Origin: Flavobacteriales bacterium
GTDB taxonomy: Bacteria; Bacteroidota; Bacteroidia; Flavobacteriales_D; Sanyastnellaceae
Length of the DNA: 32,277 nucleotides
Direction of reading: 5' to 3'
NCBI GenBank assembly: GCA_023264155.1
Contig: JALQTD010000010.1
Span: 1-32,277 of the forward strand
Below, one piece after another: positions 3,881-18,754 of the stretch. Positions within the stretch are counted from its first letter, which is position 1; each line of letters starts with the position of its first letter. The notes beneath the pieces are model-generated. The model was not told the DNA's origin and did not search any database. It saw only the letters and a list, made by a program, of their open reading frames with translations. Made by a program: the position numbers and the translations under genes.

Positions 3881-3926
3881 AACCTTGATGGATTTCCCGC
3901 GTAAAGGGAGCCATCAAGGTTTTTTT
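3881..3926 (+). terminator. Intrinsic terminator after the FKBP gene, touching the next start codon
   Basis: The arms AACCTTGATGG (3881-3891) and CCATCAAGGTT (3911-3921) pair perfectly over 11 bp; an inner TCCC/GGGA pair is possible in the 19-base loop. A run of T follows to 3926. The ATG of the next gene begins at 3928, so the hairpin and U-tract fill the whole region where a leader would be. Confidence 0.85.
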
Positions 3927-3927
3927 C

Positions 3928-6204
3928 ATGAACCCATTCTACTCCCTCCTTTCCGTTGTTCGCGCCACTGGCGTGATGTTGTGTTTGCTCTGTGCGGTTC
4001 CGCTGCACGGCCAGCTCACTACCGAGGAATCCAAGGCCCCGATCGCTGTGACGCTTGGGGACTACACGCCCGACCGGGGACTCGCCTGTCCGGCGGATGG
4101 CGAATTGCAGTCCCGCGAAGGGGCCGCGCGCCGCTCGTACGAGCGTTTCGAGGCCGCTGTGCACGATCAAATCAATCGCGACCGTTTCCGGGTTTACAGC
4201 GGGACGCGGCCTGCGGAGGCCGTCTTGGAATTGCCCGTGGTGGTGCATGTGCTGCACCGGGGCGAGGCCGTAGGGGAAGCCTTTAACCTGGGATACGACC
4301 AAATCGCGAGCGCCCTCGACGCGCTGAACGCGGACTTTGCGAACGCCTCGGGCATCGACACGGGCATCCGCTTTGCATGGGCCCGCCGGGACCCGGATGG
4401 CCGCCCAACCACCGGCATCGTGCGCCATGCGGTGGAAGATCGCACCGCCTTGAATGCCGCGGAATGGATGCCGGAACTGGGGTGGGACACCAAGCGCTAC
4501 ATCAACATCTACGTGCTGCCAAGCATGGGGGATTTGGAATGGAAAGGCCGGACCATCGGTGCTTCCATGGACCAAGCGCCTTTCGGCATTGCTGTTGCTG
4601 CGCGTGCTTTCGGCACGGAGGGCTGGGTGGATGCGTGGACGGCTGAAAACCGCACCCTGACCCACCAGATGGGGCATTACCTCGGATTGCGGCACGTGTA
4701 CGCGCCGGTTGAAGGGCGTCCGGAAGATTGCTTCCACACAGGAGATGGCGTTTGCGACACGCCGCCATCTGAGCAGCGCACCCAATGCGTTTCCTCCGGG
4801 GACGAAGCGGACCACAACCACATGGATGCGTTGCCCGGTGTATGCCGCAACCACTTCACTCCTGGTCAAAAAGAACGCATGCGCGCAACGGTGATCGCCA
4901 TCTTGCCCGAACTGCTTGAACCGACCACCACGGACCCCCTGGCCTCGCTCGATGGAGCCATTACGGAAGTGGGGGTAGATGATTTGGCCTGCTCCGCAGA
5001 AGGCAAGCCCTGGGTGGAGCTGGCGAACCTCGGTACAACGCCCATCGATTCGGCGGTCGTTCGTGTGCAATTGAACAGCCGCGAGGCCTATCCCGTTTTC
5101 TGGGGTGGCAAGTTGCTGCCGGGCGGGCGCGTGCGCATCTACGCCCCGACCATGGCCATCGGCTACGGGCCTTTTGCCCTCACGGCATCGTTGGAATTGC
5201 CCGTGGAAAACGGGCGGAATGCGGCGGACCGCGAAAACGCCTTTGTCCAACTGGAAGGGTATTTGGCGAACAACGAATCCGTCTACAGCGGGGAAAACCT
5301 GCCGGGCAATCGCTTGGAAATGGCTTTGGCGCCGGATGCCTTCGGCGATGAAGTGCACTGGATTTTGTCGGACCAAGCTGGCACGGAATGGGCGCATTCG
5401 GCCCCTTACCCCATCGGCAAGGCGGGCATTCCCGTCCAGCAAACGGTCTGCGTGCCGGCGGGGTGTTACCGCATCGAATTGTCCGATGCCGGCGGCGATG
5501 GCCTGAATGGCCCCAACACGTGGTACGAATTGCGCTCGGCCGGTGGGGACATCTTGACCTCAGGCCAAGGGGATTACGGGGCAGGCACTTCAGCTTCGTT
5601 CTGTGTGTCCTACGTGGAACCTGAGCGCTGCATGGACGCAAACCTGAACGGGGTCTGCGATGCTGAAGAACGGATGGGCTGCACGGACCCCATGGGCTGC
5701 AATTACGATCCGCAAGCCACTTACCTGACGGAATGCGCGCTGCCCGAATTCGGCCGCGATTGCTCCGGTGAGTGCCTCGGGGATGCCGATGAAGATGGCA
5801 TCTGCGACCAGCTCGAATGGGTGGGATGCCAAGACCCGCGCGCCTGCAATTACGACGACAAAGCCACCGATCCCGGTGCTTGCGACTACGGGGACTGCGA
5901 AGGGTCGGCTGAATCGCTCGGCGATCAGGCCGCAGCCCGCGAAATCAAGTTGTTCCCGAACCCGTCTTATGAACAGCCACCGGTTTGGACCGTGGAGGGC
6001 TTTGAGCGGGATGGCATGCGGGCGCGGTTGTTCTCGCCAAGCGGGGTGCTGGTCTGGGAAGCGGTGACCGAGCGCGAGGCCGATGGGCGCCACCGCTTGC
6101 GGACCAACACCTGGATTGCGAGCGGCGCCTACATCTTGGAACTCTCGGCAGCCGACTACGAATACCCCGTGGCCCCTTCGGTCTTGCACGTCCGGGTGCG
6201 CTAA
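3928..6204 (+). CDS. Secreted M43 (pappalysin/cytophagalysin)-like protein with HQxxH in place of HExxH
   Basis: A 758-residue secreted protein with a signal peptide (cut near LHGQ). Residues ~95-330 match the zinc metallopeptidase family M43, starting at LELPVVVHVLHRGE. The zinc motif reads HQMGHYLGLRH (residues 246-256): the three zinc histidines are kept, but the catalytic Glu is Gln247 (codon CAG at 4666-4668). The Met-turn region is NHMDALPG rather than the usual YMDY. After it come Ig-like and Gly/Asp-rich segments, two Cys-rich repeats (GCTDPMGCNYD, GCQDPRACNYD) separated by a DADEDGICD Ca-binding-like stretch, and a T9SS sorting domain from ~672 (LFPNPSYEQPP, SGAYILEL). Start choice: no other ATG/GTG/TTG lies between the in-frame stop at 3886 and this ATG. 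By analogy with E-to-Q mutants, it is probably catalytically dead and may bind rather than cut. Confidence 0.85.
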   Translation: MNPFYSLLSVVRATGVMLCLLCAVPLHGQLTTEESKAPIAVTLGDYTPDRGLACPADGELQSREGAARRSYERFEAAVHDQINRDRFRVYSGTRPAEAVLELPVVVHVLHRGEAVGEAFNLGYDQIASALDALNADFANASGIDTGIRFAWARRDPDGRPTTGIVRHAVEDRTALNAAEWMPELGWDTKRYINIYVLPSMGDLEWKGRTIGASMDQAPFGIAVAARAFGTEGWVDAWTAENRTLTHQMGHYLGLRHVYAPVEGRPEDCFHTGDGVCDTPPSEQRTQCVSSGDEADHNHMDALPGVCRNHFTPGQKERMRATVIAILPELLEPTTTDPLASLDGAITEVGVDDLACSAEGKPWVELANLGTTPIDSAVVRVQLNSREAYPVFWGGKLLPGGRVRIYAPTMAIGYGPFALTASLELPVENGRNAADRENAFVQLEGYLANNESVYSGENLPGNRLEMALAPDAFGDEVHWILSDQAGTEWAHSAPYPIGKAGIPVQQTVCVPAGCYRIELSDAGGDGLNGPNTWYELRSAGGDILTSGQGDYGAGTSASFCVSYVEPERCMDANLNGVCDAEERMGCTDPMGCNYDPQATYLTECALPEFGRDCSGECLGDADEDGICDQLEWVGCQDPRACNYDDKATDPGACDYGDCEGSAESLGDQAAAREIKLFPNPSYEQPPVWTVEGFERDGMRARLFSPSGVLVWEAVTEREADGRHRLRTNTWIASGAYILELSAADYEYPVAPSVLHVRVR

Positions 6205-6244
6205 GAAAGTCCCCTGCGCCGTGCCAAAAACACGGCTGAATCCG

Positions 6245-6251
6245 TAGTTTG
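6245..6251 (+). promoter_or_regulatory. Possible -7 element of the DUF819 gene
   Basis: TAGTTTG resembles TAnnTTTG with a one-base-shorter spacer. The TA lies 13 bases before the ATG at 6258, one base further than in the five strict cases listed in the findings. Weak -33 region. Confidence 0.35.
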
Positions 6252-6257
6252 CGCCCC

Positions 6258-7535
6258 ATGACTGCTTTGATCACCAACGACGCGGTGGTGCTCGGCTTGC
6301 TCTTGGCCGTTTTGGCCTTGGTCTTCCACACGAGCCGCCTTCCACAATTCGCGAAATTCTACCGCATTGTCCCTTCCTTGCTGCTGTGCTATTTCCTGCC
6401 GGCGCTGTTGAATTCCGCGGGGATCATCGATGGCGAATCTTCGTCCCTTTATTTCGTAGCGTCCCGGTATTTGCTCCCGGCGAGTTTGGTGCTGTTGTGT
6501 TTGAGCATCGACTTGAAGGGCATCTGGAACCTGGGGCCCAAAGCACTGATCATGTTTTTCACCGCCACGGTGGGGATTGTCATCGGTGGCCCCGTGGCCC
6601 TGAAACTTGTCAGCTTCATTGAACCCGCTGTGTTGGGTGGCGACGATCCTGAAGCCTTTTGGCGCGGCCTGTCCACTGTGGCGGGTTCTTGGATTGGCGG
6701 CGGCGCGAACCAAGCGGCCCTGAAAGAAATCTCGCAAACCACGGACGACCAGTTCAGTGCCATGCTCATCGTGGACGTTTTCGTCGCCAACCTGTGGATG
6801 CCGTTCCTCCTCGTCGGAGCCGGAATGAGCGCCGTACTGGACCGCAAGCTGAAGGCGGACGCGAGTGCGGTGACCGCGTTGAAGGAAAAGGTGGAGCAGT
6901 TTTCGATGAGCATCGCTCGGAATCCGTCCTTTGCGGACCTCATGGTCATTTGCGGTTTGGCTTTCGGATCCGTGGCCTTGGCTCACGTGGGCGCGGATGG
7001 ACTGGGGCCGTTGTTCGCGGATTGGTTTGGCCAAATCAAAGCCGCCAACCCTTCCAGCTTCGTGGTCTACCTCTCCAGCTTGGAACAGGGCTTCTTCTGG
7101 ATCGTCGTGCTGGCCACCGCCATCGGCATCGGCCTGAGCTTCACCCCTGCCCGGTCCTATGAAGGCGCTGGCGCGAGTAAAATCGGGAGCGTCTTCTTGT
7201 ACGTCTTGGTGGCCACCATCGGAATGAAAATGAACCTGCGCGAGCTGTATCACCAGTGGGACGTTTACTGGTCGGTCATCTTGATCGGCTTGATTTGGAT
7301 GGCCGTTCACATCATCACGCTGTTGGCGGTGGCCAAATGGATCAAAGCCCCCTTCTTTTTCGTCGCTGTGGGCTCCCAAGCCAATGTGGGCGGGGCCGCA
7401 TCTGCCCCGATTGTGGCCAGTGCATTCTCCCCGGCCTTGGCCCCCGTAGGCGTCCTCTTAGCTGTCCTCGGATACGCGGTCGGTACGGTCGGCGCGATCG
7501 TTTGCATGGAGCTCATGCACGCGATTTCGATGTAG
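6258..7535 (+). CDS. DUF819 family integral membrane protein (putative transporter)
   Basis: A 425-residue inner-membrane protein with about ten to twelve hydrophobic segments (for example LLLAVLALVF, ALIMFFTATVGIVIGGPVAL, SVFLYVLVATIGM, VGVLLAVLGYAVGTVGAIV). Conserved blocks such as GSWIGGGANQAAL and GSQANVGGAASAPIVA are typical of the DUF819 (YjcL-like) family, whose small-residue repeats resemble those of transporters with two inverted halves. Substrate is unknown. I prefer ATG 6258 over the TTG at 6249 because it sits properly behind the promoter-like box. The 3' end overlaps the convergent gene 7458-8777 by 78 bp. Confidence 0.88.
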   Translation: MTALITNDAVVLGLLLAVLALVFHTSRLPQFAKFYRIVPSLLLCYFLPALLNSAGIIDGESSSLYFVASRYLLPASLVLLCLSIDLKGIWNLGPKALIMFFTATVGIVIGGPVALKLVSFIEPAVLGGDDPEAFWRGLSTVAGSWIGGGANQAALKEISQTTDDQFSAMLIVDVFVANLWMPFLLVGAGMSAVLDRKLKADASAVTALKEKVEQFSMSIARNPSFADLMVICGLAFGSVALAHVGADGLGPLFADWFGQIKAANPSSFVVYLSSLEQGFFWIVVLATAIGIGLSFTPARSYEGAGASKIGSVFLYVLVATIGMKMNLRELYHQWDVYWSVILIGLIWMAVHIITLLAVAKWIKAPFFFVAVGSQANVGGAASAPIVASAFSPALAPVGVLLAVLGYAVGTVGAIVCMELMHAISM

Positions 7536-8777
7536 GCCTTTTGCCAATTGCGGTGGCAATCCATTGCGCGTATACAACACCTTGCGGCGGTCGTTTTCAT
7601 CGCGCTTTCGGCGGATGAGGTCGTAACCAAACAACAGGTTGAACTCCGTGTTCACCCCTTGGATCATCCGAGATCGTTTGGCCCGCAAGGTTTCTGGCGA
7701 GGCGATGTCTGCGATGGCAAACAGTTCATCCAGTTCGCCCGCGGTGAACACGGTTTGGTCCGAAAGCACGATGGCCTTCAGGGGCTCCGACCAGTGGGCA
7801 ATGCTGTCCATCGCATCCTTCGAAACCACGGCGTCATACGCAAATCCGCCCACCACGGCCGAGGATGCGGCCTCTCGGCTCATGCCCCGGCTCCGCCACC
7901 ACCACGCTGCAAAAGCCGTCCACGTTCCCAGCAACAGCCAAAAGGCCCAATTCGAAAGAACCCCGCCGTCTTGCTCCTCCACCGAACTCGGGAGCACCCA
8001 GTCAAACGGTGAGGCAAAGCTGGCGTACCGCACTTTTTCATTGAAATCGAACCGGTTCAACGCATCGCTTGACATGCCGAATTCCAGGACATTCGGCGTG
8101 CGCATCCGCAACACCTCAGCCTCCTCGGCCCGCATCAAGTGCGCCGCCCACGCATCGGAAGGAAACGTGGCGAGCTGCTCGGTGCGCTTGTCCAATACGT
8201 GCAAGGTTTGGCCTGCACTTGCCCAAACCACGAACTGGTCCAAATCAAACGGTCCTGCGACCGGCTTCCAATCGGCCGCCGACGAGCGCAAGCGCAAGGT
8301 CCACGTCCCCGAGGTCAAATTCAATTCATGCACCGCCAGCTCGTCCCCCATCGAAACCCGCTGCAACTTGTGCCCCTCGATGAAGTTCGCATGAGGCAAG
8401 GCCAAATCCGGCTGCTCCCCTGTCGTCAGCCGCTCCTGCCATTTCTCGGTTGCAGCATGCCAACTCCACAACGTCCCCGCCAGGGCATCGATCGCTCCAT
8501 CATTGAACACCACCCACCCCTCGGTTCCCGGGAACACGGCACTGTGCCGCACCTCTCCTGAAGCCGGGAAGCCCTTTGGAAACGCAATGGCTCCGTCCTG
8601 AATCACCAATGAATCCTTGCCTTGGTCCCGCCACTTCACCACACGCTGCACCTTCCCTTCCTCATGGACCCGTAGCCAGGAACTCCCCGCAAGCGGCAAG
8701 CCCAACCCGAGCAAGGCAGCTACGCTCAACGCCCTCCATGTCCAACTTCCCCTCCTATTTTCGGTCTTGTACTCCAT
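7458..8777 (-). CDS. Two-TM membrane protein with large periplasmic domain and basic cytoplasmic C-terminus
   Basis: I do not recognise this 439-residue protein with certainty. A short basic N-terminus precedes a first hydrophobic segment (~15-32). A ~240-residue presumably periplasmic domain follows, with repeated W/beta-strand patterns (GWVVFNDGAIDAL, LWSWHAATEKW, TWTLRLRS) that could be an irregular propeller. A second TM lies at ~275-294 (FWLLLGTWTAFAAWWW), then a ~145-residue charged tail (ETLRAKRSRMIQGVNTEF, LIRRKRDENDRR) that looks helical and could bind nucleic acid or protein. This layout would fit a transmembrane sensor or regulator, but that is inference. The ATG at 8777 is chosen because it follows a TATTTTCG box; in-frame starts further upstream would lie across the promoter. 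The last 26 codons overlap the DUF819 gene in antisense. Confidence 0.7.
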   Translation of the reverse strand: MEYKTENRRGSWTWRALSVAALLGLGLPLAGSSWLRVHEEGKVQRVVKWRDQGKDSLVIQDGAIAFPKGFPASGEVRHSAVFPGTEGWVVFNDGAIDALAGTLWSWHAATEKWQERLTTGEQPDLALPHANFIEGHKLQRVSMGDELAVHELNLTSGTWTLRLRSSAADWKPVAGPFDLDQFVVWASAGQTLHVLDKRTEQLATFPSDAWAAHLMRAEEAEVLRMRTPNVLEFGMSSDALNRFDFNEKVRYASFASPFDWVLPSSVEEQDGGVLSNWAFWLLLGTWTAFAAWWWRSRGMSREAASSAVVGGFAYDAVVSKDAMDSIAHWSEPLKAIVLSDQTVFTAGELDELFAIADIASPETLRAKRSRMIQGVNTEFNLLFGYDLIRRKRDENDRRKVLYTRNGLPPQLAKGLHRNRVHELHANDRADRTDRVSEDS

Positions 8778-8796
8778 GCCTGCGCAAACTTGGATT

Positions 8797-8804
8797 CGAA
8801 AATA
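8797..8804 (-). promoter_or_regulatory. -7 element (TATTTTCG) of the two-TM protein gene
   Basis: Minus strand reads TATTTTCG, the same octamer as at the amylase gene, 19 bases before the ATG at 8777. The 157-bp gap to ribA otherwise holds a small hairpin with a T-rich loop at 8854-8872. Confidence 0.5.
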
Positions 8805-8934
8805 AAAGATAATCCATCGCAGCTGCATGTAGAAATTATGTGACAATGCGATTAACGGAAAAAAAGTCCGTTGCAACATATTTCCACGTATTTCTGCGCT
8901 CGATACGGCCTGATTTCAATTGGCCTGCGTTGCC

Positions 8935-15309: not shown

Positions 15310-18300
15310 TTACTCCGGGCAGGCCGTTCCATACGTGGCCAAGAACTCGATCAAATCAGCCGAACCGATCGAACCGTTGCCGTCCACATCGAAGGGGCAG
15401 CTCGCCACACAGTCGAACGTGCACGTGCCATCGTCTTGCGTCGCTGAAGCGTTGTAATTCAGTGCATCCATGTAGGTGCAGCCGACAACGGTGTCCTCGC
15501 ACGAACCGTCGTCGGAAGAGGCCAGCGGGTTGTAGTTCGCAGCGCCCTCATCGGTACATCCCTCCCACACGCAAGAACCGTCATCGTACGTCGTCGCGGC
15601 GTCGTAGTTCGTCGCATTCGCGTAGCCGCATCCTCCGACGATGCACGATCCATCGTCCACATTCGCGGTTGCATCGTAGTTGTCCGCATTCGGGTTGGTG
15701 CAGCCCAAATACGCACAAGACCCGTCATCGTCCGTTGCGGAAGCATCGAAATTCGATGCGCTCGGATCCGTGCAGCCCGGGACCTCCAATTCATCGCAGA
15801 CCCCATCGCCATCCGCGTCGTTGACGCAATTTCCATCGCAATCGTAGTACAGCTCGGGGAACACACACGAACCGTCGTTGGTGTTGGCGCTGGCGTCGTA
15901 ATTGCACGCCCCTGCATCGGTGCACCCTGGGAACTCGCACGAGCCGTCCTCATCGGTCGCCTCGGGATTGTAGTTCGCCGCACCGGCATCCGTGCATCCC
16001 GCGATTTCTTGCTCGTCACACACCCCGTCCCCGTCGGTGTCGTTCAAGCATTCCCCGAAACAATCGCGGAATGGTTCGGGGTAGACGCACGAGCCATCAT
16101 TGGCCTCCGCCTCGAAGTCATAGTTGCAAGCGGTTTCGTCCGTGCAGCCTTGGATGACGATGGGGAACTCCAGCGTCTGCTCGATCTCCTGCGGATTTTC
16201 GCCATTCTCTGCCCGGTATTGGAGGTTGACTGAAAGGTTCACGACCCCGTCCGTCGTCAACTGTGCAATGAGCACACGCCCCTGTTCGTCGGGATAGGCC
16301 AAAGGTTCCAAGCCCGGCAACACAAACCAGCTGCCGCCCAATGCATTGTCGATGGCGAATTCCCCGCCCGCTTCAAACGTAGCCGCTGCGGCGTCCACGC
16401 CGACCGTGGTCAAATTCACTGCATTGTCCTCTCCCCCTACGGTAAACCATGAATCGTAGGCCAAATCAGGGTCCACCATCAGCGCTGTCGGAGAAACGGC
16501 ATTTGCAAATGCGCCACCCAACTCGTTCTGGTAGAACGACGTGGTCGTGGTGATGCTCATCGGATCGCCCTCTTGCGCGAACACCGCCGTGAGTTGGTCG
16601 TCTGGGTTGTCGAAATTCGCATAGACCCGGTACGTGCGCAGGCCTGCAGTCGGCATGTCCTCCGCCACCAACTCATACGTCAAGCCGGTATAGCTCGGCT
16701 CGGGGTATTCGCAAGAACCGTCATCGAACGTCGCTTCCGCATCGTAGTTGTCGGCCAGCGGATCGGTGCAACCGAGGCCCGTGTTCGTTTCCGGGAAGGT
16801 CAGTTCCATGCCCGTTCCTTGGTAGGTCACCAAATCAAAGTCCCGGATTTGGATGTTCCAGTTGACTGACACCACGCCGTCTGACGTGATTTGGCCTAGA
16901 AGTACCCGGCCATCCACCGGCACGGACTGCGTCGAAATCCCCGGGACCAAGTACACCGAACCACCGGTAAAGGTGTTCACGTTGAGTTCATCCGTGGCGT
17001 TGAAATCCAACATGAAATCCTCCATGCCCAATGAAGTTGAATTGTCGGTTTCCCCAGGCGCAGCGCCCAATGCCAACCAAGTATCAAACTCCAACGTCGG
17101 GAAGAACCCGAAGAAAGCGGGGTTCAAATCCGCAGCATAATCACCGCCCATCTCGTCTTGGTAGATGTCACCCGTGGACGAGATGGTCCACGGAGCTGTG
17201 TCGTAGCCAAAGGCCGCCACCACTTCCAAATCCGACGCGGAGAAGTCCGCAAAAATGCGGTAGGTGGTGTATCCGGTCACCCCATCTTCTGCATAGACCT
17301 CGTACGAGAGCCCCTCAATCAATCCTCCTGCCCAGTTGCACGAGCCGTTGTCCGTGGTTGCCTCCGGGTTGTAGTTGTCCGCTGTTTCAGCCGTGCATCC
17401 AAATACTTCCAAGTCATCACACACCCCGTTGTTGTTCACATCGGACAAGCATTCCCCCGCACAATCCTCTCCCGGTGCAGCGAAGGTGCAAGAACCGTCG
17501 TCGTCCGTGGCTTCAGCGTCGTAATTGCATGCCGTTTCGTCGGTGCACCCTTCAATGAAGAGCGTACCTGCGCATTCGCAATCCATGCTGTACACATCGT
17601 TGATGGTGTTCGGGTTGCCGTCATCGCATGGGTTGGTCGGGTAGTAACACACTTCAAGTTGGTTCGCATTCGGAACGTAGTTGCATCCCTCAGGATCGTC
17701 GCAACCACTGACCGCAACTTCTCCAGCGCACGTGCAATCCTCCCCGAACACATCATTCACCGTACCGGGATCCCCGTCATCGCAGGCCGCTCCGATTCCA
17801 AGGCAGATGCCTTCGGTGTTGGCTTCAGGGTTGTAGTTACACGCGAGCGGGTCCATGCATCCCTGGACAATCAACACGCCCGTGCAGTCGCATGCGTCAT
17901 CGACAACGTCCCCGGTCGTGTTCGCGTTGCCGTCATCGCACGCATCTCCGATGGAGAAGCACGAACCGTCGTCCACTTCAGCGGTGCTGCTGTAGTTGCA
18001 GGCTCCAGCGTCCATGCAGCCTGCTTCGAGCACCGGCCACATCATGTCCAGTCCTTCCTCGTTGAAGGTGGTGTTTGCCGCATCGCGGTATTGGATGTTC
18101 CAAATCAAGGACATCACTCCCGTCGTGGTCAGTTGGGCAATCAACACCTTGCCATCGTCGCCGGCCAAGGCGTCTGCTGATGATCCGGGAACGATGTACC
18201 ACGACGCTCCGTTTTGGTTGTTCACTGTGAACCCATTGCCCGAATTGAATCCGTCCATAAATGGCTCAAACCCGAGCGAAGAAACGCCACCGGTGCCGTT

Positions 18301-18633
18301 CGAGTTGGCGGAGCCGATGGTGAACCACGAGTCATAGGCCATGCTCGGAATCGCCGCAAAGAACAGCTCATTGATGCCCTGCCCCAAAAACACCCCTAAA
18401 GGATCCTGGTAGAACGTCGTGGTGGTCGCCACCTTCAGGGGCGCATTCAAAGAGACACTTTGTTCACCGTAAACCGCTACCAATTCGTCCGTAGGGGAGT
18501 CAAAATTCGCATAAAAACGGTACGTGGTGCCGAACTCAGACGTTGCCGTCGTTTCCACCGTAATGCCGGTAAACGAAGCGCTAGCGTTCAGCGAAAGCAG
18601 GCAGGCTGCCATTGCAAGCAGAGAAAATCTCAT
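15310..18633 (-). CDS. Large secreted modular protein: three ~180-residue modules, 14 GCTD repeats, dockerin-like end
   Basis: A 1107-residue secreted protein of unknown function. The ATG at 18633 gives a signal peptide (MRFSLLAMAACLLSLNASA). Three homologous modules lie at ~20-200, 438-614 and 647-824. They share TYR(F/I/V)(Y/F)A(N/D)F, (F/I)YQ(D/N)E(L/M)GG, D(S/T)W(F/L)..G, a (G/S)(S/W)(W/V)(Y/F)..PG motif, GRVLIAQ(L/I)T and NIQYR. Between and after them are 14 Cys-rich repeats of the type GCTD..ACNYD..A..DDGSC, three CDDGNPNTxND segments and three DC.G.CLND.DGDGVCD stretches resembling thrombospondin-3 calcium loops. The C-terminus is CPFDVDGNGSIGSADLIEFL plus ATYGTACPE, dockerin-like, not a T9SS domain. 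Probably an extracellular structural or adhesive protein needing calcium and disulfides. Confidence 0.85.
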   Translation of the reverse strand: MRFSLLAMAACLLSLNASASFTGITVETTATSEFGTTYRFYANFDSPTDELVAVYGEQSVSLNAPLKVATTTTFYQDPLGVFLGQGINELFFAAIPSMAYDSWFTIGSANSNGTGGVSSLGFEPFMDGFNSGNGFTVNNQNGASWYIVPGSSADALAGDDGKVLIAQLTTTGVMSLIWNIQYRDAANTTFNEEGLDMMWPVLEAGCMDAGACNYSSTAEVDDGSCFSIGDACDDGNANTTGDVVDDACDCTGVLIVQGCMDPLACNYNPEANTEGICLGIGAACDDGDPGTVNDVFGEDCTCAGEVAVSGCDDPEGCNYVPNANQLEVCYYPTNPCDDGNPNTINDVYSMDCECAGTLFIEGCTDETACNYDAEATDDDGSCTFAAPGEDCAGECLSDVNNNGVCDDLEVFGCTAETADNYNPEATTDNGSCNWAGGLIEGLSYEVYAEDGVTGYTTYRIFADFSASDLEVVAAFGYDTAPWTISSTGDIYQDEMGGDYAADLNPAFFGFFPTLEFDTWLALGAAPGETDNSTSLGMEDFMLDFNATDELNVNTFTGGSVYLVPGISTQSVPVDGRVLLGQITSDGVVSVNWNIQIRDFDLVTYQGTGMELTFPETNTGLGCTDPLADNYDAEATFDDGSCEYPEPSYTGLTYELVAEDMPTAGLRTYRVYANFDNPDDQLTAVFAQEGDPMSITTTTSFYQNELGGAFANAVSPTALMVDPDLAYDSWFTVGGEDNAVNLTTVGVDAAAATFEAGGEFAIDNALGGSWFVLPGLEPLAYPDEQGRVLIAQLTTDGVVNLSVNLQYRAENGENPQEIEQTLEFPIVIQGCTDETACNYDFEAEANDGSCVYPEPFRDCFGECLNDTDGDGVCDEQEIAGCTDAGAANYNPEATDEDGSCEFPGCTDAGACNYDASANTNDGSCVFPELYYDCDGNCVNDADGDGVCDELEVPGCTDPSASNFDASATDDDGSCAYLGCTNPNADNYDATANVDDGSCIVGGCGYANATNYDAATTYDDGSCVWEGCTDEGAANYNPLASSDDGSCEDTVVGCTYMDALNYNASATQDDGTCTFDCVASCPFDVDGNGSIGSADLIEFLATYGTACPE
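15415..18022 (-). repeat. Fourteen degenerate ~66-bp coding repeats (GCTDxxACNYDxxAxxDDGSC)
   Basis: The repeats are visible at protein level: examples are GCMDAGACNYSSTAEVDDGS, GCTDETACNYDAEATDDDGS, GCTDAGACNYDASANTNDGS and GCTYMDALNYNASATQDDGT. Four lie between modules one and two, followed by a fifth, one lies between modules two and three, and eight follow module three. DNA copies have drifted (CTCGTCATCGT-like pieces recur) so this is an old array, not a recent tandem expansion. Related repeats occur four times in 11865-13676 and twice in 3928-6204. Confidence 0.85.
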
Positions 18634-18664
18634 GGTGAGGGTTTGGGTTGGTTGAGTCAATACA
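18634..18664 (-). promoter_or_regulatory. ACC-rich leader with TTGA-N-TCAA palindrome
   Basis: Minus strand shows TTGACTCAA followed by ACCAACCCAAACCCTCACC and the ATG at 18633. It aligns with the leader at 13677-13705. I see no convincing -7 element; TATTGACT overlaps the palindrome. Confidence 0.35.
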
Positions 18665-18754
18665 AAAGACGGACGAAACCGGATTCGGTTGCCGCAACAT
18701 GCGCTCAAGTTAACGGGAAAGTTCCCCTTTCACAAGCCCCACCCCATCGGCTTC

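What the first reader, a model, noticed from the sequence alone, without database searches (positions are those of the whole stretch)
4663..4695. Pseudo-metalloprotease: HQMGH instead of HEMGH in an otherwise conserved M43 zinc site
The codon CAG at 4666-4668 puts Gln where the general-base Glu of HExxHxxGxxH must be. All three zinc histidines remain, and the Met-turn is also altered (NHMDA). E-to-Q is the classic inactivating change in this class, so the protein may bind zinc and peptide without cutting. The protein still keeps a signal peptide and T9SS domain, so it seems maintained for another role.
Basis: partly seen in the sequence, partly recalled or inferred. Interest (0 to 1): 0.6.

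Follow-up and report, generated by a model that had tools for sequence, protein, structure and literature searches.

The report
Conserved secreted pseudo-protease of M43 family
A secreted protein that looks like a zinc protease has lost two of the residues it needs to cut proteins, yet a related species keeps the same dead-looking site, so the gene was probably put to a non-cutting job such as binding.

Summary
Window 4663-4695 encodes HQMGHYLGLRH (H246-H256) in an intact 758-aa M43/pappalysin ORF, and codon 4666-4668 is CAG (Gln247). It is not a read error: the only other genome held of the genus has the same site (CAA) at the same syntenic locus. Across 87 M43 homologues, 85 have Glu there. 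The exceptions are the same-genus copy and a truncated Brumimicrobium remnant. Zinc histidines, Met-turn Met299 and the disulphide cysteines are kept.

What changed around the Met-turn is the "tyrosine switch" (mirolysin Tyr286): Ala here, Gly in the sister species, Tyr in 86 of 87 homologues. The gene is the positional orthologue (YaaA-FKBP-M43-GltS) of a family-wide HE/Tyr protease, so catalysis was lost in place. The domain diverged on the stem (38-41% to orthologues that share 64-72%, while GltS shows no such gap) and is now constrained (dN/dS about 0.13).

Best reading: a maintained, zinc-binding, catalytically dead pseudo-pappalysin, probably acting by binding. Its actual role is inferred. 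The same double loss recurs in other Gln-M43 proteins of Bacteroidota. The T9SS tail is only sub-threshold by profile. The kind (zinc-retaining metzincin pseudopeptidase, e.g. ADAM7) is known; I found no M43 case described.

The parts
3928..6204 (+). Pseudo-M43 gene, 758 aa secreted multidomain protein
   Evidence: Open ORF; Pfam M43 1.6e-10; orthologue in G001, 67% identical over 756 codons
3928..4011 (+). Putative signal peptide, residues 1-28
   Evidence: Read from sequence (MNPFYSLLSVVRATGVMLCLLCAVPLHG); no signal-peptide program was run
4012..4221 (+). Pro-segment, residues 29-98, with Cys54 (4087-4089) aligned to the cysteine-switch Cys of pappalysins; Cys-Pro here instead of Cys-Gly
   Evidence: Alignment with 29 homologues covering it, Cys in all; Cys23 switch of mirolysin (PMC6949598)
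4222..4893 (+). M43/pappalysin catalytic-type domain, residues 99-322
   Evidence: model pLDDT 82, pTM 0.81, Z 25.2 to promirolysin
4663..4695 (+). Zinc-site motif H246-Q247-M-G-H250-Y-L-G-L-R-H256: three zinc His kept, general-base Glu replaced by Gln (codon 4666-4668)
4816..4830 (+). Met-turn NHMDA (297-301): Met299 kept, tyrosine-switch Tyr replaced by Ala301
   Evidence: Tyr in 86 of 87 homologues, Gly in the same-genus orthologue; role of mirolysin Tyr286 (PMC6949598)
4837..4839 (+). Gly304 at the position of mirolysin S1' specificity Asp289 (variable in homologues, so weak evidence)
   Evidence: PMC6949598
4930..5292 (+). CARDB-like beta domain
5293..5613 (+). Second beta domain shared with the active orthologues (D.FG.E..W...D..G motif)
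   Evidence: Alignments
5620..5907 (+). Cys-rich GCTD..ACNYDP.AT repeats
   Evidence: About 150 matches elsewhere in the same genome
5950..6201 (+). C-terminal domain resembling a divergent T9SS type A sorting domain; 90% identical between the two species
   Evidence: Sub-threshold Por_Secre_tail: Pfam 0.17, TIGR04183 0.093; identity

Best explanation
This is a catalytically dead pappalysin (family M43) that is kept as a working protein. SHOWN by sequence: it is the positional orthologue of a protease gene found across the family, and in this genus it lost both the general-base Glu (now Gln247) and the intermediate-stabilising switch Tyr (now Ala or Gly), while keeping the three zinc His, the Met-turn Met, the four cysteines of the two disulphides and the pro-segment Cys. 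After a burst of change on the stem of the genus it is under purifying selection. INFERRED: it is exported, folds like pro-mirolysin and binds zinc, but cannot activate the zinc-bound water or stabilise the tetrahedral intermediate, so it does not cut peptide bonds. Because pappalysins remove their pro-segment by their own activity, the cysteine switch may stay closed unless another protease trims it. Most likely role, inferred only: a secreted or cell-surface binding module that holds peptide or protein ligands, or shields substrates from the genome's HE-type M43 paralogues.
For: Gln shared with the same-genus genome through a synonymous codon (CAG/CAA); in the 19-codon run NRTLTHQMGHYLGLRHVYA, 10 codons differ and all are silent. 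85 of 87 homologues have Glu, 86 of 87 have Tyr; all have the three His. Synteny YaaA-FKBP-M43-GltS in G001, G042 and G002; M43 next to GltS also in G012, G031 and G006. Catalytic domain 38-41% identical to HE orthologues that share 64-72%, while GltS is about 70-75% in all these comparisons; stem 2.44 against tips 0.55 and 0.35. dN/dS 0.145 over the gene, 0.13 in the domain, similar to YaaA and FKBP. Fold Z 25 to promirolysin. PAPP-A E483Q inactive (PMC6498606); mirolysin Glu225 and Tyr286 roles (PMC6949598). The same double loss is seen in other Gln-M43 proteins.
Against: Only two genomes of the genus are held, both draft assemblies. Synonymous sites are near saturation (pS 0.68), so dN/dS is approximate. 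No activity, zinc or expression data. The long stem places the pair poorly in the tree; synteny carries the orthology claim. G000 is 87.6% complete, so an active copy of this orthologue cannot be excluded there, although G001 is 99% complete and shows none. No evidence identifies a ligand.
Confidence: 0.82

Rival explanations
1. The M43 domain is only a structural spacer or a permanently latent zymogen plug: the cleft stays closed by Cys54 and the useful work is done by the downstream beta domains, the Cys-rich repeats or surface anchoring. (This shares the dead-enzyme premise of the best explanation and differs on what the domain does.)
For: Pro-segment Cys kept; the C-terminal domain and second beta domain are more conserved (90% and 77%) than the catalytic-type domain (65%); auto-activation needs activity (PMC6949598).
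Against: The 19 residues around the zinc site are fully conserved while the rest of the domain is about 65% identical, which suggests that the site itself matters. Structural zinc could also explain this.
Confidence: 0.3
2. It is still a protease, with weak activity through Gln-polarised water, another acidic residue or a new substrate chemistry.
For: All zinc ligands kept; no assay exists.
Against: Second catalytic residue also lost; PAPP-A E483Q reported inactive in IGFBP-5 cleavage (PMC6498606); mirolysin E225A lacks activity (PMC6949598).
Confidence: 0.1
3. Gln247 is deamidated to Glu after export, making a slow-activating protease.
For: Not excluded by sequence.
Against: The switch Tyr is missing too; Gln deamidation without an enzyme is slow (general knowledge); no precedent was found here.
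Confidence: 0.03
4. The gene is decaying.
For: Accelerated stem; a decayed Gln copy does exist in Brumimicrobium glaciale, where the N-terminal half is gone.
Against: Intact ORF and domains in both species, dN/dS about 0.13-0.15, silent-only changes round the site.
Confidence: 0.03
5. Sequencing or assembly error at base 4666.
For: No reads are available; the window is a draft contig.
Against: Independent genome with Gln encoded by CAA plus matching loss of the Tyr.
Confidence: 0.01

Closest known systems
Mirolysin (Tannerella forsythia) and ulilysin, unicellular pappalysins (M43)
   Same: Fold (Z 25), three zinc His, Met-turn Met, two disulphides, pro-segment with switch Cys
   Different: Glu225>Gln247, Tyr286>Ala301, Asp289>Gly304 and Cys-Gly>Cys-Pro in the pro-segment; extra C-terminal domains
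Positional orthologues in the same family (e.g. L201, 1379 aa) and cytophagalysin CPL1 type multidomain pappalysins
   Same: Genomic position (orthologues); pro-segment, catalytic-type domain, CARDB-like and following beta domain
   Different: Orthologues have HE and NYMDY; L201 also has PKD and SprB repeats, a clear T9SS tail and about twice the length
ADAM7 and other ADAM pseudopeptidases (M12B)
   Same: HQLGHNLGMQHD in ADAM7: Glu replaced by Gln with zinc ligands kept (PMC11266112)
   Different: Another metzincin family, animal membrane proteins; that review names no M43 case
PAPP-A E483Q laboratory mutant
   Same: The same single change in the same family, reported inactive (PMC6498606)
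   Different: Man-made; here it is natural, shared by two species and joined by loss of the Tyr
Short Gln-M43 proteins of Bacteroidota (L083, L085, L087, L089, L090, L094-L096, L100)
   Same: Gln in place of Glu, non-Tyr at Met+2, three His kept
   Different: About 260-330 aa, no long C-terminal part, a separate clade (SH-aLRT 99)

Membership tests
M43 / pappalysin family (sequence family) | Significant match to Peptidase_M43 | tested here: met
   1.6e-10, 41.6 bits against cut-off 23
M43 / pappalysin family (sequence family) | Metzincin fold of the pappalysin type | tested here: met
   Model pLDDT 82; the top nine entries are mirolysin and ulilysin, Z 23.5-25.2, then PAPP-A/PAPP-A2
Active M43 peptidase | General-base Glu in HExxHxxGxxH | tested here: not met
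   Gln247; Glu in 85 of 87 homologues
Active M43 peptidase | Three zinc-binding His | tested here: met
   H246, H250, H256; invariant in 87 of 87
Active M43 peptidase | Met-turn methionine | tested here: met
   Met299
Active M43 peptidase | Tyrosine switch two residues after the Met | tested here: not met
   Ala301; Gly in G001; Tyr in 86 of 87
Active M43 peptidase | Measured proteolysis | not testable with these tools
   Needs protein
Zinc-retaining pseudopeptidase | Catalytic residues lost, ligands kept, conserved across species | tested here: met
   only two species available
Zinc-retaining pseudopeptidase | Binds zinc, no turnover | not testable with these tools
   Needs protein
T9SS type A cargo | Por_Secre_tail domain above curated cut-off | tested here: not met
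   12.6 bits against 27 (Pfam) and 12.7 against 23 (TIGR04183), aligned over most of the model; orthologue L201 matches at 2.3e-13. Likely divergent, not formally a member
Pappalysin zymogen with cysteine switch | Cys in a Cys-Gly motif of the pro-segment | tested here: inconclusive
   Cys54 aligned and invariant, but followed by Pro (Ala in 10, Gly in 10 and Pro in 4 of the 29 homologues with data)

The most novel reading that the evidence does not exclude
Gln-pappalysins are a recurrent class of secreted pseudoproteases in Bacteroidota. In several separate lineages (this genus, a nine-member clade of short secreted proteins, and others) the general base became Gln and the switch Tyr was lost together while the zinc site was kept, giving dedicated zinc/peptide-binding proteins.
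Probability: 0.55. Interest if true: 0.55.

Novelty: new variant of a known kind. Interest (0 to 1): 0.42.

Why it matters
Pseudopeptidases are well studied in animals but hardly in bacterial metzincins. This locus is a clean natural experiment: same position, active-looking orthologues in sister genera, the two catalytic residues lost in place, then renewed constraint. It makes the question of what an exported protease does after losing catalysis directly testable. It also warns that annotating such genes as metalloproteases from Pfam alone can be wrong. The linked loss of Glu and Tyr gives a simple sequence rule for finding more.

Tried and rejected
Read error: rejected, because G001 carries Gln by another codon. 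Decaying gene: rejected by dN/dS and the intact ORF. First-pass pattern HQ.GH..G..H was too loose (204 of 399 genomes, mostly an unrelated HQTGHNSGVIH motif) and was narrowed. The search for related loci with the target alone found nothing in genome contigs, so a codon pattern was used instead. The first structure job, with 26 sequences, left the C-terminal subdomain under pLDDT 50; it was repeated with 69 sequences. Tree placement of the target pair among family genera is not usable (long stem, deepest fork support 14). Literature searches for an M43 pseudoenzyme found none; the library holds open-licence papers only. A check of read support for base 4666 was not possible.

Full report
OBSERVATION. 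The ORF runs 3928-6204 on the + strand, 758 aa from ATG. Nucleotides 4663-4695 read CAC CAG ATG GGG CAT TAC CTC GGA TTG CGG CAC, i.e. H246-Q247-M-G-H250-Y-L-G253-L-R-H256, with Gln247 = CAG at 4666-4668. Pfam Peptidase_M43 matches at 1.6e-10, and the nearest solved chains by sequence are mirolysin (4e-20) and ulilysin.

IS GLN REAL AND CONSERVED? At the same locus it has the same gene (67% identity over 756 codons) with HQMGHYLGLRH and NHMDG. Its Gln codon is CAA. In the 19-codon run NRTLTHQMGHYLGLRHVYA, 10 codons differ between the species and all 10 differences are silent. A sequencing error is therefore excluded for practical purposes, and the Gln appears to be held by selection on the protein.

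HOW UNUSUAL IS IT? I aligned 87 homologues from the family and order and read the catalytic columns. Glu is found in 85 of 87. The two with Gln are G001 and a Brumimicrobium glaciale copy whose N-terminal half is absent, so that copy is a remnant. The three zinc His are invariant. The residue two after the Met-turn Met is Tyr in 86 of 87, Gly in G001, and Ala in the window. A codon pattern for HQ.GH.[LF]G..H matched 4 of 399 genomes of the order. The HE version of the same pattern matched 108 of 114 genomes of the family (that pattern also admits other metzincins).

WHAT WAS LOST. In mirolysin Glu225 is the general base/acid, Tyr286 approaches the zinc and is proposed to stabilise the tetrahedral intermediate, Asp289 sets S1' specificity, and pro-segment Cys23 blocks the zinc (PMC6949598). 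The window has Gln247, Ala301, Gly304 and Cys54 in these positions. Gly304 is weak evidence because that column varies among homologues. The same Glu>Gln change in PAPP-A (E483Q) failed to cleave IGFBP-5 (PMC6498606).

HISTORY OF THE LOCUS. Gene order YaaA-FKBP-M43-GltS, with the divergent gene at 421-2490, is the same in G001, G042 and G002, and the M43-GltS pair is also found in G012, G031 and G006. In those other genera the M43 gene has HE; in the ones whose full ORF was read (G012, G031, G042, G002) it is about 1380-1390 aa long, and the Tyr is intact. So the window gene is the positional orthologue, and catalysis was lost in place. Catalytic-domain identity between the window and these orthologues is 38-41%, while the orthologues of different genera share 64-72% among themselves. 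The neighbouring GltS is 70-75% in both kinds of comparison. The burst of change is therefore specific to this gene. The tree agrees: a stem of 2.44 changes per site against tips of 0.55 and 0.35, although the long stem makes the exact placement unreliable.

CURRENT CONSTRAINT. Window against G001: dN 0.26, dS about 1.8 (pS 0.68, near saturation), ratio 0.145; catalytic-type domain 0.13; C-terminal domain 0.05. Neighbours give 0.205 (YaaA), 0.131 (FKBP) and 0.035 (GltS). This is an ordinary, maintained gene.

STRUCTURE. AlphaFold2 on residues 29-330 with 69 own-session homologues gave pLDDT 82 and pTM 0.81. The best solved matches are promirolysin (Z 25.2, 247 aligned), proulilysin, ulilysin and mirolysin, then PAPP-A and PAPP-A2 (Z about 18). 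The model carries no zinc and says nothing about activity.

ACTIVE PARALOGUES. The same genome has at least two other M43 ORFs with HE motifs: G000:C44 (HEAGHWMNLRH, NYMDYS) and G000:C419 (HEIGHYLLLDH, TYMEY). No HE copy of this orthologue was found in either genome of the genus. A regulatory or substrate-shielding role towards the paralogues is possible but untested.

SECRETION. The N-terminus reads as a signal peptide (by eye). The C-terminal domain aligns with most of the T9SS sorting-domain models but stays below their cut-offs; the orthologue L201 has a clear one (2.3e-13). T9SS export is likely, not proven.

RECURRENCE. One scan of about 85,000 genomes for the tighter HQ pattern gave 19 loci, most of them M43-like by eye. 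Nine short proteins from several Bacteroidota lineages form one clade (SH-aLRT 99). Their nearest relatives found in a 395-genome sample of the phylum have HE. Wherever the Met-turn of an intact Gln protein could be read (14 rows, some closely related), the residue at Met+2 is not Tyr. In HE relatives it is Tyr in nearly all that could be read (two exceptions, L112 and L125). The parsimony count on a small tree is five changes, with some long branches. The Gln set was picked by its Gln, so its uniformity is not evidence by itself; the linked loss of the Tyr was not selected for.

VERDICT. A maintained, zinc-site-retaining, catalytically dead pappalysin is strongly supported; what it binds or does is open. 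Zinc-retaining metzincin pseudopeptidases with HQ are known (ADAM7, PMC11266112), and Glu>Gln is the commonest replacement of this Glu in zincins (PMC3650047). The kind is therefore known; the M43 instance and the linked loss of Tyr were not found described in the papers searched.

Noticed in passing
window 3881-3926: A terminator-like hairpin (AACCTTGATGG...CCATCAAGGTT plus T-run) ends one base before the ATG at 3928, and it is conserved in G001 (L022 about 1455-1500) with a wobble change. Either the FKBP terminator abuts a leaderless start, or it is an attenuator of the pseudo-M43 gene.
   Followed up: partly
L083, L085, L087, L089, L090, L094, L095, L096, L100: A second, separate clade of short secreted-looking M43-like proteins with HQ[LIMF]GH[FY][FL]GL and no Tyr at Met+2, spread over Bacteroidota draft genomes.
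   Followed up: partly
L097 about 5913-6722 (-), Brumimicrobium glaciale: M43 remnant with HQVGH but intact NYMDY, lacking its N-terminal half: probably a true pseudogene.
   Followed up: partly
L051-L072 and many other genomes: Motif HQTGHNSGVIH is conserved in an unidentified protein in about half of the order's genomes.
   Followed up: no
window 5620-5907 and 15310-18708 (-), plus G000 C111, C210, C99: Cys-rich GCTD..ACNYDP.AT repeats occur about 150 times in this genome, within large open frames.
   Followed up: no
window 7458-8879 (-): Neighbouring ORF is only 39% identical to its G001 counterpart (dN/dS about 0.4), the fastest-changing of the genes compared in this stretch.
   Followed up: no
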